Shown: piece by piece, positions 1 through 18,471 of the stretch
Layout of the letters: each line of letters begins with the position of its first letter
How positions within the stretch are numbered: the stretch's first letter is position 1
Source: a virus
Reading direction: 5' to 3' (one strand)
DNA: 20,318 nt
Virus record (IMG/VR): IMGVR_UViG_3300045453_000015
Location: 1-20,318 of that record
The notes under the pieces: generated by a model
The model's database searches: none
The model's input: the letters and a program-made list of their open reading frames with translations, nothing else
What the model was told of the DNA's origin: nothing
Program-made: the position numbers and the translations under genes

Positions 1-532
1 CGAGCGGCCGCGACACTTCCTCACCACGCGTGTAGGGCACGACGCAGAAGGTGCAGTACTTCGAGCAGCCTTCCATGATCGACACGAAGGCGCTCGCACC
101 TTCCACACGTGCGGGTGGCAGGCTGTCGAACTTCTCGATTTCCGGGAATGAGATATCGACCTGCGAGCGCCCGCTGCGTCGCCGCTCGGCGATCAGCGCC
201 GGCAGGCGATGCAAGGTCTGCGGACCGAACACGAGATCGACGTAAGGCGCGCGCGCGACGATCGCGTCGCCCTCCTGACTCGCCACACAGCCGCCCACGC
301 CGATGATGAGCTCGGGCCGCGCGCGTTTGAGGTGCTTGACCCGCCCCAGGTCGTGAAACACCTTCTCCTGCGCCTTCTCGCGCACCGAGCAGGTGTTGAA
401 CAGGATCACGTCGGCCTCTTCGGGGTTGTCGGTCTTTTCCAGCCCTTCGGCGGCGCCGAGCACGTCGGCCATCTTGGCCGAGTCGTACTCGTTCATCTGG
501 CAGCCGAAGGTGCGGATATACAGTTTCTTCAT
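1..532 (-). CDS. miaB: tRNA-2-methylthio-N6-dimethylallyladenosine synthase MiaB, N-terminal part (runs off window)
   Basis: Host gene. MiaB is a radical-SAM methylthiotransferase that adds a 2-methylthio group to i6A37 of tRNAs reading UNN codons. The visible 177 residues start [18 protein letters not shown]. They carry the three cysteines of the N-terminal UPF0004 domain (C11, C48 in FNTCSV, C82 in GVGGC) and the radical-SAM triad CSKYCTFC (C156, C160, C163). The ATG lies at 530-532 on the minus strand; the C-terminal radical-SAM barrel and TRAM domain are outside the window. No strong Shine-Dalgarno is visible before the start. It is divergent from the tRNA-Met gene. It shows no sign of damage and marks host DNA to the left of the prophage. 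Confidence 0.96.
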
Positions 533-550
533 GCGGTGCTCGTCTTTTGG

Positions 551-580
551 TTGACGCTGTCGTCGTCGAGCCATTATATT
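551..580 (+). promoter_or_regulatory. Sigma70-type promoter of the tRNA-Met gene
   Basis: A TTGACG -35 box (551-556) and a TATATT -10 box (575-580) are separated by 18 bp. This places the transcription start near 587, just before the tRNA at 593. The spacing, near-consensus boxes and position directly upstream of the tRNA support it. The same AT-rich stretch reads TATAAT on the minus strand (578-573) and might also serve miaB, but no good -35 box was seen there. Confidence 0.7.
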
Positions 581-2844: not shown

Positions 2845-3294
2845 CTACCCGCGATTGCGCTCGTACTCGTGCAGCGCATCCAGCAGTCGATCGAACTTCT
2901 CCGGCATCGCGCTGTAGCTGCGTGCCGTCGTGAGAAGACTGGCGAGATGCGTGACGGGGACGTCGCCGCTGGCTTGCATCCGAGCAAAGCTGTGACCGAG
3001 ACGGTCGATGATCATCGCATGCGTCACGTCGACGAGTTCATCGAACGCGCGCAGATTCTGCTCGCGTTTTTGCGAAAGGTCGAAGACGCGAATGAGCGTC
3101 AGTGCCAGGGCCAGTGCAGCCAGGGTTGCAGCAGCCGGCCATGCCCAGTTGGGGGATCCCGGAACAAGGCTTGCGAACCATGCAAGACCGGTGGCGATGC
3201 TGAACACGTTGCTCAACCCATTGATGAGCTTCGCGTGCGCGTCATAGAAGGCGTGAAGGCGGCGTGCGTGGAGTTTCTGGACGGAGCTTTTCAT
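2845..3294 (-). CDS. Leftward two-TM membrane protein, SLATT-like candidate (moron)
   Basis: A 149-residue protein starting MKSSVQKLHARRLHAFYDAH. A basic amphipathic N-terminal helix is followed by two hydrophobic segments (about 24-44 and 50-70, joined by a short VPGSPNW turn). A long charged helical part then runs to the C-terminus, with RVFDLSQKREQNLRAFDELV after TM2. This layout resembles SLATT/S-2TM-type proteins, which are predicted membrane effectors in bacterial conflict systems, but no diagnostic motif proves membership. It is transcribed against the early operon and has its own upstream control region with a 10-bp inverted repeat. It ends 8 bp after the preceding convergent gene. 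Such isolated opposite-strand genes in prophages are often lysogenically expressed morons; superinfection exclusion or defence is an inference. Confidence 0.8.
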   Translation of the reverse strand: MKSSVQKLHARRLHAFYDAHAKLINGLSNVFSIATGLAWFASLVPGSPNWAWPAAATLAALALALTLIRVFDLSQKREQNLRAFDELVDVTHAMIIDRLGHSFARMQASGDVPVTHLASLLTTARSYSAMPEKFDRLLDALHEYERNRG

Positions 3295-15695: not shown

Positions 15696-16253
15696 ATGGC
15701 GCGCGCGAGCTCCATCGAGCAGTTGCCGCCCGACATCCTCGAGCAGTTGCAGGCGCTGTTGCGCGACCCGCGCATCGCGCAGCTCGAGGCGACCGCGCGC
15801 ATCAATGCCATCCTCGCCGAGCGCGGCGAGTCGCCGGTGTCCAAGAGCGCCGTCAACCGCTACGACCTCAAGATGCGCGAGGTCGGCGAGCGGCTGCGCC
15901 AGTCGCGCGCGGTGGCCGAGATGTGGATCGGCAAGCTCGGCGCCGCGCCGCAGGGGCAGATCGGGCACCTGATCAACGAGATCCTGCGCACGCTCGCCTT
16001 CGACATGACGCTGCAGCTTCAGGACGACGCGCAGCTCGCCGTCGACGCCGAGGCGCGCGCCGGCGTGATCGGCATGCTCAAGGAACTGTCGCTGACCACG
16101 CAGCGCCTGGAGAAGGCCGCGAGCGAGAACGTCAAGCGCGAAGCCGAGATCCGCAAGCAGGCCGCCGAGGCCGTCGAGAAGTCGCTCGCCAGCGCCGGCA
16201 TGAGCCGCAGGTCGATCGACAGCATCAAGCGCGAAATCCTGGAGATTGTGTGA
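15696..16253 (+). CDS. DUF3486, Mu gp27-like small terminase subunit candidate
   Basis: A 185-residue helical protein of DUF3486. An N-terminal HTH-like segment (LPPDILEQLQALLRDPRIAQ, then TARINAILAERGESPVSKSA and VNRYDLKMREVGERL) is followed by a long central helix region. The C-terminal coiled-coil part is LEKAASENVKREAEIRKQAA. Mu gp27 is regarded as the small terminase (DNA-recognition) subunit. Normally the next gene is gp28; here two leftward genes intervene. A GGGGGAG stretch lies about 7 nt before the ATG at 15696. Confidence 0.9.
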   Translation: MARASSIEQLPPDILEQLQALLRDPRIAQLEATARINAILAERGESPVSKSAVNRYDLKMREVGERLRQSRAVAEMWIGKLGAAPQGQIGHLINEILRTLAFDMTLQLQDDAQLAVDAEARAGVIGMLKELSLTTQRLEKAASENVKREAEIRKQAAEAVEKSLASAGMSRRSIDSIKREILEIV

Positions 16254-16263
16254 TGGGCAGCGT

Positions 16264-16698
16264 CTATCTGTCAGCACGCCGGCCGCTGATGAGCGCGCGC
16301 GCCACGCCCATCAGCGGCACGCCCAGCAAGGCCAGCGCCACCGAGATCGGGCCATCGGACAAGGCCACCGCCGCCGCTCCGAGCACCGAGCCCACCGACA
16401 CCGTAAAGCCCATCCACTGCCCGCGGCGCTCGAAGGCGCGGCAGGCGGCGTCGTCGTCGATTTCGGCCTGCAAGGCGCTGCGCTCCGCGCTTACGCGGTG
16501 GGCGTGCTCGCTCTCGGCCAGCGCCAGAATGCGTTCGGCCGCGCCGGGCACGATGGTCTCGAACTGTTCGAGCGCGGCGGGCGGGGGCAGCGGGCCGCTC
16601 CAGTGGGCGGCAGTGATCGATGCGGGTTTTTGCGCAGGCTCAGCGCGTCGAGCGGGCTTTTTCACGCTCGATGCCACGGCGCAGATCCTCTCCGACAT
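16264..16698 (-). CDS. DUF2335 family two-TM membrane protein (moron)
   Basis: A 144-residue protein with the DUF2335 layout: a basic, variable N-terminus (to about 33), then SGPLPPPAALEQFETIVPGA (about 34-53). A helical part follows (AERILALAESEHAHRVSAER, then SALQAEIDDDAACRAFERRG), and two hydrophobic segments (about 97-113 and 117-135) end near a basic RALISGRRADR. It is a predicted inner-membrane protein of unknown function. Genes of this family are scattered in prophages and genomic islands. It is transcribed leftward between the small and large terminase genes, so it is probably expressed independently of the late operon, possibly in the lysogen. It overlaps its upstream partner by 59 bp. 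Confidence 0.85.
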   Translation of the reverse strand: MSERICAVASSVKKPARRAEPAQKPASITAAHWSGPLPPPAALEQFETIVPGAAERILALAESEHAHRVSAERSALQAEIDDDAACRAFERRGQWMGFTVSVGSVLGAAAVALSDGPISVALALLGVPLMGVARALISGRRADR

Positions 16699-16852
16699 GA
16701 TTCCAGTCGCTGCGCAGGGCTTCGAGCTCGGAAGCGTGGGGATAGCCTTTGATGCGGTGCCGGCACGGCGGGCCGAACACGAACGCCGGCGCCGCCAACC
16801 CGTCGAGGAAGGCGTTCCAGAAGCTGCGGCGCGCGTTTTGAGGGGTGCTCAT
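16640..16852 (-). CDS. Small partner protein upstream of the DUF2335 gene
   Basis: A 70-residue protein, MSTPQNARRSFWNAFLDGLA, then APAFVFGPPCRHRIKGYPHA and a charged helical tail ending RGIEREKARSTR. A short hydrophobic stretch at about 13-28 could associate with the membrane. The start chosen is 16852; an upstream in-frame ATG at 16861 gives three more residues. It overlaps the DUF2335 gene by 59 bp, so the two are coupled. I recall similar small genes next to DUF2335 genes in phages, but have no family name. Function unknown. Confidence 0.7.
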   Translation of the reverse strand: MSTPQNARRSFWNAFLDGLAAPAFVFGPPCRHRIKGYPHASELEALRSDWNHVGEDLRRGIEREKARSTR

Positions 16853-16882
16853 GGGGCACATGGTAACGGAACCTGTGACGGC

Positions 16883-16909
16883 TTGACAACCAGCGCGGTG
16901 CGTTGGTTG
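16883..16909. promoter_or_regulatory. Inverted repeat and TTGACA box between the leftward cassette and the large terminase
   Basis: CAACCAGCGC (16887-16896) and GCGTTGGTTG (16900-16909) form a 10-bp inverted repeat with one mismatch and a 3-nt spacer. A TTGACA (16883-16888) overlaps its left arm but no -10 box follows at the right distance on the plus strand. On the minus strand TTGTCA at the same place is followed 17 bp later only by a poor TTACCA. It could be an operator for the cassette or a break in the late transcript; both are inference. Confidence 0.4.
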
Positions 16910-16953
16910 CGCTTGTGCGGCGGACGTTTTGCGCCTCAACGGATGGCGCCGGC

Positions 16954-18471
16954 ATGAGCGCGCCGCCCCTCTCCGTCCTGCTGCCGTATCAAAAGGCCTG
17001 GGTCGCCGACGCCGCGCCGCTCAAGATCGCCGAGAAGAGCCGCCGCACCGGCCTCACCTGGGCCGAAGCGGCCGACGCGGTGCTGTCGGCCAGTGCCGCC
17101 AAGTCCGCCGGCGGCACCAACCATTTCTACGTCGGCAGCAACAAGGATATGGCGATCGAGTTCATCGACGCCTGCGCGATGTGGGCGCGCGCCTTCAACC
17201 GCGCCGCCTCCGAGATCGAGGAGGCGATCATCGCCGACGAGGATCGCGACATCCTCACCTTCAACGTCCGCTTCAACTCGGGCTTCAAGATCCAGGCCTT
17301 GTCGAGCCGCCCGTCGAACATGCGCGGCCGCCAGGGCAACGTCACGATCGACGAGGCGGCCTTCCACGAGCAGCTCGCCGAGGTGCTCAAGGCGGCGCTC
17401 GCGCTCACGATGTGGGGCGCCAAGGTGCGGCTCATCAGCACCCACAACGGCGCCGAGAACCTCTTCAACGACCTGATCCAGGACAGCCGCGCGGGCAAGA
17501 AGCGCTACAGCGTGCACCGCATCACGCTCGACGACGCCTGCCGCGACGGCCTCTACCAGCGCATCTGCCAGGTGCGCGGCCAGCCGTGGAGCCAGGCCGC
17601 CGAAGACCAGTGGAAGGAGAACCTGCTCTCCGACACCGCCACCCGCGAGGACGCGCTCGAGGAGTACTACTGCGTGCCCAAGTCCGGCGGCGGCGCGTAT
17701 CTCGCGCGCGCGCTGATCGAGGCGCGCATGGTGGAAGCGCAGGTCGAGCGCTTCGAGGGCTCGGCCGAGTTCAACGCCTGGCCCGAGCACCTGCGCGAAG
17801 CGGAAGTGCGCGACTGGTGCGAGACGCATCTCAAGCCGCTACTCGTCCAGCTCAACGCCTCGACGCCGCACGCCTTCGGCGAGGACTTCGGGCGCTCGGG
17901 CGACTTGACCGTGATCGCGCCGATCACGATCGAGCAGGACCTCAAGCGCCGCGTGCCGTTCCTGGTGGAGCTGCGCAACGTGCCGTTCAAGCAGCAGGAG
18001 CAGGTGCTGAACTACATCGTCGACCGCCTGCCGCGCCTCGCGGCCGGTGCGCTGGACGCGCGCGGCAACGGCCAGTATCTCGCCGAGCAGACCGCCTACC
18101 GGTATGGGGCCGGGCGCATCGAGTGCGTGATGCTCTCGCAGGCCTGGTACCTCGAGCACATGCCCAAGCTCAAGGCCGCCTTCGAGGATGACCGCATCAG
18201 CGTGCCGCGCGATCGCGACGTCGCCGACGATTTGCGCGCGATCCAGGTGATCCGCGGCATCCCGCGCCTGCCCGAGGGCAAGACCGGCGACGCCAAGGCG
18301 CGCCACGGCGACGCGGCGATCGCGATCGCGCTGGCGTACTACGCGGCGCAGATGGACACGGTCGAGATCGACTTCACGCCGGCGCCCAAGGCCGGGGCGT
18401 TCTCCGCGAGCGGCGCCGGCGACGATGACGACGACAACCACGACGACGGATTTGGAGCGGGCGCATGGTAG
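16954..18471 (+). CDS. Large terminase subunit (Mu gp28-like)
   Basis: A 505-residue DNA-packaging motor. The ATPase half shows a Walker-A-like KSRRTGLT (residues 28-35), of the basic form usual in Mu-type terminases. Walker B is NVTIDEA (D133, E134), followed by a coupling motif ISTH (161-164). The C-terminal nuclease has acidic residues in FGEDFGRSGD (D311), GALDARG (D368) and RHGDAAIAIALAYY (D453), as in RNase-H-like terminase nucleases. The tail is acidic and disordered (DDDDDNHDD). The start MSAPPLSVLLPYQKAW is chosen by homology, since an upstream in-frame start (16903) runs through the control region. No strong ribosome site is seen. It overlaps the portal gene by 7 bp. Confidence 0.94.
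   Translation: MSAPPLSVLLPYQKAWVADAAPLKIAEKSRRTGLTWAEAADAVLSASAAKSAGGTNHFYVGSNKDMAIEFIDACAMWARAFNRAASEIEEAIIADEDRDILTFNVRFNSGFKIQALSSRPSNMRGRQGNVTIDEAAFHEQLAEVLKAALALTMWGAKVRLISTHNGAENLFNDLIQDSRAGKKRYSVHRITLDDACRDGLYQRICQVRGQPWSQAAEDQWKENLLSDTATREDALEEYYCVPKSGGGAYLARALIEARMVEAQVERFEGSAEFNAWPEHLREAEVRDWCETHLKPLLVQLNASTPHAFGEDFGRSGDLTVIAPITIEQDLKRRVPFLVELRNVPFKQQEQVLNYIVDRLPRLAAGALDARGNGQYLAEQTAYRYGAGRIECVMLSQAWYLEHMPKLKAAFEDDRISVPRDRDVADDLRAIQVIRGIPRLPEGKTGDAKARHGDAAIAIALAYYAAQMDTVEIDFTPAPKAGAFSASGAGDDDDDNHDDGFGAGAW

What the first reader, a model, noticed from the sequence alone, without database searches (positions are those of the whole stretch)
16264..16852. Leftward DUF2335 cassette inserted between small and large terminase genes
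Mu gp27 and gp28 are neighbours; here two overlapping leftward genes split them. DUF2335 is a two-TM family of unknown function found in mobile elements. The opposite direction and the inverted repeat upstream suggest independent expression in the lysogen, for instance for superinfection exclusion.
Basis: partly seen in the sequence, partly recalled or inferred. Interest (0 to 1): 0.6.

Follow-up and report, generated by a model that had tools for sequence, protein, structure and literature searches.

The report
Two-gene membrane cassette in Mu-like prophage
A Mu-like prophage carries, backwards between its two DNA-packaging genes, a copy of a two-gene membrane module; the second gene (DUF2335) was already catalogued, but here I find that it nearly always comes with an overlooked small overlapping partner gene, in phages and bacteria from many phyla, which makes the module's unknown function (probably prophage-borne protection) testable.

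Summary
Confirmed: two overlapping leftward ORFs (16640-16852, 70 aa; 16264-16698, 144 aa, DUF2335) lie between Mu gp27-type TerS (15696-16253) and TerL (16954-18471). In 81 Mu-like relatives the TerS-TerL gap has a median of -1 bp. Only one of them carries other cargo there (L008, a DNA methylase). A separate Mu-like prophage (L223) has the same pair, same orientation, same slot, beside unrelated terminase genes.

What the finding missed: the small upstream ORF is a conserved protein family, absent from Pfam, NCBIfam and PADLOC. A profile built from 12 phage examples finds it upstream of DUF2335 in 67 of 80 independent clusters (74 after one iteration), spanning many phyla; controls gave 0. 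An unbiased Pfam survey gave 21/31. Natural in-frame fusions occur. The small gene evolves under purifying selection.

Locally the pair has a sigma70-like promoter (16889-16860) overlapped by an inverted repeat, so independent expression is plausible. Elsewhere the pair is patchy, and its phage neighbours are mostly integrase, repressor and antirepressor genes.

Function is not shown. Best guess: a lysogen-expressed, membrane-linked exclusion/abortive-infection module (about 0.4), with toxin-antitoxin addiction as main rival.

The parts
16640..16852 (-). Small upstream ORF (70 aa, P0001), first gene of the pair; not in Pfam, NCBIfam or PADLOC
   Evidence: Profile trained without the window: 51.4 bits, E=1e-15; family seen upstream of DUF2335 in 67/80, then 74/80 clusters; no library family
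16775..16843 (-). Predicted N-terminal helix of the small protein (residues 4-26), the 'fl.G.gs.ldi.p' region
   Evidence: AlphaFold2 model, helix 4-26; consensus of 66 relatives
16670..16717 (-). Conserved motif LRSDWNHVGEDLRRGI (residues 46-61) in the second helix (42-69)
   Evidence: Consensus 'AlrsDW..VG.D.r.A' over 66 relatives; alignment A5; model
16264..16698 (-). DUF2335 gene (144 aa, P0002), second gene of the pair; possible internal GTG start at 16677 preceded by GAGAGG
   Evidence: PF10097 53.7 bits; PHROG 3996, 'membrane protein', moron category, E=4e-26; sequence read
16453..16587 (-). Pfam DUF2335 core (residues 38-82), predicted cytoplasmic
   Evidence: alignment A6 conserved columns
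16273..16416 (-). Predicted membrane hairpin (about residues 95-113 and 118-142) after a long helix that begins at residue 53
   Evidence: Model pLDDT 88, helices 53-113 and 118-142; two hydropathy peaks in 57 of 66 relatives
16640..16698 (-). 59-bp overlap of the two reading frames
   Evidence: overlapping open frames in 61 of 66 relatives, same relative frame in 56 of 66
16860..16889 (-). Promoter-like site TTGTCA-18-TACCAT, 7 bases before the ATG, so a leaderless or near-leaderless mRNA is possible
   Evidence: promoter-like sites upstream of the small ORF in 17 of 65 relatives versus 6.0 in shuffles, max 14
16887..16909 (.). Inverted repeat CAACCAGCGC/GCGTTGGTTG over the -35, candidate operator
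   Evidence: I7
15696..16253 (+). Small terminase (Mu gp27), left flank of the slot
   Evidence: PF11985 E=2.2e-40; PHROG 426
16954..18471 (+). Large terminase, right flank of the slot
   Evidence: PHROG 2 E=1e-39, PF03237

Best explanation
The cassette is a moron: a self-contained two-gene transcription unit, read against the late genes. It belongs to a widespread gene pair, a small helical protein plus the DUF2335 membrane protein. Shown: it sits in a slot empty in most relatives; the two genes are co-inherited and overlap in a fixed frame; the small gene is under purifying selection. Predicted: the second protein has a cytoplasmic part and a two-helix membrane hairpin. Inferred: it is made in the lysogen from the promoter at 16889-16860; the small protein binds the cytoplasmic stalk of DUF2335; the two together form a membrane-linked guard that stops or aborts infection by other phages, in the manner of two-gene prophage exclusion systems such as lambda RexAB.
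For: Slot: 81 relatives, median TerS-TerL gap -1 bp, window 700 bp; same pair, slot and orientation in L223. Pair: profile hits in 67/80 clusters, 0 in shuffles, other windows and the opposite strand; 74/80 after iteration; 21/31 in an unbiased Pfam survey; 20 of 26 PF10097 genomes also rang with the small-ORF alignment. In-frame fusions in L228/L229 and L268. dN/dS of the small gene about 0.10-0.44 where identity is 0.58 or more. Mirrortree r=0.38 versus permutation max 0.16. Own promoter-like site. Neighbours of the pair in viral contigs are integrase, repressor and antirepressor genes. In named phages it lies beside the integrase or at the prophage end. Patchy: 2/199 genomes of one genus, 26/398 of the phylum. 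Lysogen-expressed membrane-protein and two-gene prophage defences are known in that genome region of cluster N mycobacteriophages, and Phrann's DUF2335 gene lies in that region (PMC9262239).
Against: No phage-resistance datum exists for any member. No defence-library family matches (weak LeoBC hits only, best E=0.0016). In cellular genomes no repeated neighbours, defence or other, were seen. Charlie gp32, the tested exclusion protein of a related phage, is not DUF2335. Transcription is inferred from consensus only, and the host's promoters may differ.
Confidence: 0.4

Rival explanations
1. Toxin-antitoxin addiction module that stabilises the prophage: the small first gene is the antitoxin or regulator, the DUF2335 hairpin a membrane-active toxin (or the reverse).
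For: Small first gene overlapping the second, sporadic distribution and no fixed neighbours, as in type II modules. The small gene survives where DUF2335 is broken or lost: L301, L313, L317, L322 and E. coli A8. Inverted repeat over the promoter could be an autoregulatory operator.
Against: The small protein matches no DNA-binding or antitoxin family. Some loci carry DUF2335 without a recognisable partner (Phrann and Purky), so there is no clear asymmetry between the genes. In L223 an IS separates the two genes.
Confidence: 0.27
2. A lysogenic-conversion module that changes the host envelope (for example membrane stress, surface or adsorption changes) for the benefit of the lysogen, not a dedicated anti-phage device.
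For: PHROG 3996 is filed under morons and called a membrane protein. The pair also occurs outside recognisable phage neighbourhoods in bacterial genomes.
Against: Extreme patchiness within a genus (2/199) suits conflict or selfish genes better than physiology.
Confidence: 0.2
3. The reverse transcript itself matters: antisense to the TerS-TerL junction, it damps leaky late transcription in the lysogen, the proteins being secondary.
For: The cassette is opposite to the late genes and has its own promoter-like site; L223 keeps the same orientation.
Against: Elsewhere the pair is found in either orientation relative to its neighbours and far from terminases; proteins are conserved and under purifying selection.
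Confidence: 0.05
4. The small ORF is spurious and the cassette is a decaying single DUF2335 gene.
For: The small ORF lacks a Shine-Dalgarno sequence in the window.
Against: Profile E=1e-15, 67/80 clusters versus 0 in controls, purifying selection, natural fusions.
Confidence: 0.02

Closest known systems
DUF2335 (PF10097) / PHROG 3996
   Same: The second gene is a clear member: 53.7 bits, with the core and two predicted membrane helices.
   Different: The Pfam and PHROG entries describe a single protein; as shown by the tools they do not include the small partner gene.
Pseudomonas phage MD8 gp32/gp31
   Same: Same overlapping pair beside the integrase; gp32 carries the small-ORF motif.
   Different: The MD8 paper reports gp32 as a protein found in no other phage (PMC8508860); the profile used here groups it with a large family.
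Lambda RexAB and CarolAnn gp43/gp44 type two-gene prophage exclusion
   Same: Two adjacent prophage genes, one of them a membrane protein; CarolAnn's pair is expressed in lysogeny and both genes are needed (PMC6426606).
   Different: CarolAnn's membrane partner has four predicted membrane helices and its other protein is about 370 aa; no sequence relation was tested; no defence phenotype is known for DUF2335.
Type II toxin-antitoxin operons
   Same: Small first gene overlapping the second, mobile and sporadic.
   Different: No known toxin family or DNA-binding antitoxin; the presumed effector is a membrane hairpin.
L223 (IMGVR_UViG_2775506897_000002)
   Same: Mu-like prophage with the same pair (55% and 47% identity), same slot, same orientation.
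   Different: Terminase genes not detectably related to the window's, and an insertion sequence between the two genes of the pair.

Membership tests
DUF2335 (PF10097) | Pfam profile above the curated cut-off | tested here: met
   53.7 bits against 25
DUF2335 (PF10097) | Predicted membrane protein with two helices after the core | tested here: met
   Model and hydropathy
Moron | Inserted between two genes that are adjacent in relatives | tested here: met
   81 relatives, median gap -1 bp, window 700 bp
Moron | Own promoter | tested here: met
   Consensus site 9 of 12 at 16889-16860, shuffle mean 0.0; no transcript data
Moron | Own terminator | tested here: inconclusive
   No terminator-like site after 16264 on the minus strand in the stretch scanned (16150-17050); the only site found lies inside the small gene and is at the level of chance. 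The scan covers intrinsic terminators only
Moron | Composition unlike its neighbours | tested here: inconclusive
   Overall GC alike; GC3 0.80 and 0.85 against 0.94-0.97 for TerS, TerL and portal and 0.91 for MuA
Type II toxin-antitoxin | Two small co-directional overlapping genes | tested here: met
Type II toxin-antitoxin | Toxin or antitoxin of a known family | tested here: not met
   No such family in Pfam or NCBIfam for either protein
Type II toxin-antitoxin | Toxicity of one gene neutralised by the other | not testable with these tools
   Needs expression assays
Two-gene prophage exclusion / abortive infection (RexAB-like) | Expressed in the lysogen | not testable with these tools
   Only promoter consensus and position available
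Two-gene prophage exclusion / abortive infection (RexAB-like) | Blocks other phages | not testable with these tools
   No phenotype recorded; only two held papers mention DUF2335, neither about phages
Known defence systems (PADLOC) | Match to a defence model | tested here: not met
   None for the small protein; weak LeoBC and SP_VI hits for a few DUF2335 members

The most novel reading that the evidence does not exclude
DUF2335 and its uncatalogued small partner form an ancient two-component membrane anti-phage (or toxin-antitoxin) system of a new type, spread by prophages and other mobile DNA across many bacterial phyla and overlooked because the partner gene is tiny, fast-evolving and overlapping.
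Probability: 0.45. Interest if true: 0.8.

Novelty: new variant of a known kind. Interest (0 to 1): 0.58.

Why it matters
A domain of unknown function becomes half of a defined two-gene unit. Tests of DUF2335 alone, without its partner, may have been uninformative. The pair is present in two close variants in 209 and 69 of 5426 complete E. coli genomes, so phage-challenge and toxicity tests can be run in laboratory E. coli. If it is a defence system, it is one shared by phages of Gram-negative, Gram-positive and spirochaete hosts.

Tried and rejected
Searching IMG/VR with P0001 or P0002 alone found nothing; a diverse alignment gave no pattern, so a narrow one (A3) was used, which biases the loci toward the GPLPPP motif; the Pfam-based survey was run to check this. 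Charlie gp32, an experimentally known exclusion membrane protein, was tested as a possible relative and rejected. The 'DUF2335 (phospholipase)' entry in PMC6267618 is probably a slip for DUF2235 (my knowledge), and was not used. Fold searches were uninformative: no significant PDB hit, middling Z against helical proteins, two unnamed viral matches, none for the small protein. A one-sided orphan pattern (which would point to toxin versus antitoxin) was looked for and not found: small-gene orphans and DUF2335 orphans both occur. Defence-island association was looked for and not seen (top 25 families only). L274's hit at E=0.009 is probably chance.

Full report
1. The observation. The window is a virus record of 20,318 bases: a fragment of a Mu-like prophage (Mu transposase C-terminal domain, Mu portal) with TerS at 15696-16253 (Mu gp27, PF11985) and TerL at 16954-18471. 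Between them, on the minus strand, lie a 70-aa ORF (16640-16852, P0001) and a 144-aa DUF2335 gene (16264-16698, P0002) that overlap by 59 bp. The inverted repeat is also there (16887-16896/16900-16909) and covers the -35 of a minus-strand promoter-like site, TTGTCA-18-TACCAT, that ends seven bases before the small gene's ATG.

2. Is the slot special? In 81 Mu-like relatives found by the terminases, TerS and TerL are adjacent (median gap -1 bp; three gaps above 100 bp, one above 300). The one filled slot, L008, holds a DNA methylase (PF01555) read with the late genes. A DUF2335-based search then brought in L223, a second Mu-like prophage: portal 40%, M15 peptidase 70% and DUF1353 63% identical to the window. 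It carries the same pair (55% and 47% identity), in the same orientation, between its own small and large terminase-like genes, which are not detectably related to the window's (no tblastn or blastp match; the identification of these two genes rests on position, size and sequence appearance). An insertion sequence splits the L223 pair. So the cassette is neither universal nor unique: it recurs in this slot.

3. The small ORF is a real family. Looking at annotated phages with DUF2335, nearly every DUF2335 gene was preceded by a small overlapping ORF. These ORFs share a short N-terminal helix and a motif of the form DWxxxGxDLRxA. A profile built from 12 of them was run over the upstream DNA of 138 further DUF2335 loci forming 80 clusters at 60% identity. 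It found the ORF in 67 clusters, against 0 in five rounds of dinucleotide shuffles, 0 in five sets of 80 windows elsewhere in the same loci, and 0 on the opposite strand. A second-pass profile gave 74 of 80 and, trained without the window, scored the window's ORF at 51 bits, E=1e-15. Because the search pattern for those loci was narrow, I repeated the test with DUF2335 loci found by the Pfam model in whole genomes: 21 of 31 passed, one more (L268) is an in-frame fusion, and L278, L279 and L294 show the ORF below threshold. The reverse survey with the small-ORF alignment rang in 29 of 398 genomes, 20 of them shared with PF10097; several of the remainder are weak hits inside long frames and probably chance.

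4. Anatomy. The reading frames overlap in 61 of 66 loci and stand in the same relative frame in 56. Fused forms exist: L228/L229 (an insertion joins the frames that are separate in L230) and L268. Pairwise dN/dS for the small gene is about 0.10-0.44 in pairs that align well, and 0.04-0.25 for DUF2335; the small protein evolves faster. Distances of the two proteins correlate (r=0.38, permutations at most 0.16), so they travel together. Promoter-like sites are enriched before the small gene (17 of 65 versus 6.0 expected) and not before DUF2335 itself (3 versus 3.8), as for a two-gene operon. Models: small protein, helices 4-26 and 42-69 (pLDDT 81); DUF2335, a long helix 53-113 running into a membrane hairpin 118-142 (pLDDT 88). 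Database fold searches were uninformative. No Pfam, NCBIfam or PADLOC family covers the small protein; PHROGs splits it over several families of unknown function.

5. Where else. In viral contigs the nearest genes are most often integrase, repressor and antirepressor genes, and no structural family is among the 25 commonest. In named phages the pair is next to the integrase (MD8, Gusanita, IME-SA4), or at the prophage end, as in E. coli prophages at potC; Phrann and Purky carry a single long DUF2335 gene in the integrase region. In cellular genomes the neighbours are different every time. Presence is patchy. Two variants occur in 209 and 69 of 5426 E. coli genomes.

6. Mechanism. Shown: a co-inherited, overlapping gene pair, membrane-linked by prediction, mobile, with a promoter-like site in the window. 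Inferred: expression in the lysogen, complex formation, and action on infecting phages. I favour a two-component exclusion or abortive-infection device because of the lysogeny-region neighbours, patchiness and the precedent of two-gene membrane systems (PMC6426606; PMC9262239). A toxin-antitoxin module is the closest rival and shares most predictions; the small gene persists where DUF2335 is broken or gone (L301, L313, L317, L322, E. coli A8), but DUF2335 without a recognised partner occurs too.

7. Novelty. DUF2335 is known by name only; full-text search found two papers that mention it, neither on its function in phages, and the library is only the open-licence part of the literature. The partner in phage MD8 was described as not encoded in other phages (PMC8508860). 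The gene pair as a unit therefore appears undescribed in what I could search. It is a new two-gene variant of the known kind 'prophage moron'; its function remains to be tested.

Noticed in passing
L223 4880-6336: An insertion sequence (transposase ORFs) separates the small gene from DUF2335 in a Mu-like prophage with the pair in the same slot and unrelated terminase genes.
   Followed up: partly
L008 5573-6382: N6/N4 DNA methylase in the TerS-TerL slot of a Mu-like relative, read with the late genes.
   Followed up: partly
window 2848-3294 (-): Another leftward ORF (149 aa, two hydrophobic stretches) just before the transposase gene; no Pfam hit and no match in phage records.
   Followed up: partly
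L316 1-385 (contig end): A small-ORF-like domain runs in frame into pentapeptide repeats, suggesting a partner other than DUF2335.
   Followed up: no
L322 minus strand, 1314-2227 of the reverse complement: A small-ORF relative without DUF2335 is followed directly by ORFs that look like a HigB/HigA toxin-antitoxin pair.
   Followed up: no
L255 2501-2701 (E. coli A8): Intact small gene, with DUF2335 absent at the same prophage end where other E. coli carry both.
   Followed up: yes
L101 4463-4624, L106 3458-3616, L252 5476-5637: A third tiny gene (secreted or 'transmembrane anchored' peptide) often follows DUF2335 in enterobacterial phages.
   Followed up: no
window 16282-16318: Strong 14-nt-arm inverted repeat inside the 3' end of the DUF2335 gene, 93% complementary, without a T run.
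   Followed up: no
window 2-574 (-): Left edge reads like a host miaB-type gene, so the record appears to include the prophage-host junction.
   Followed up: no
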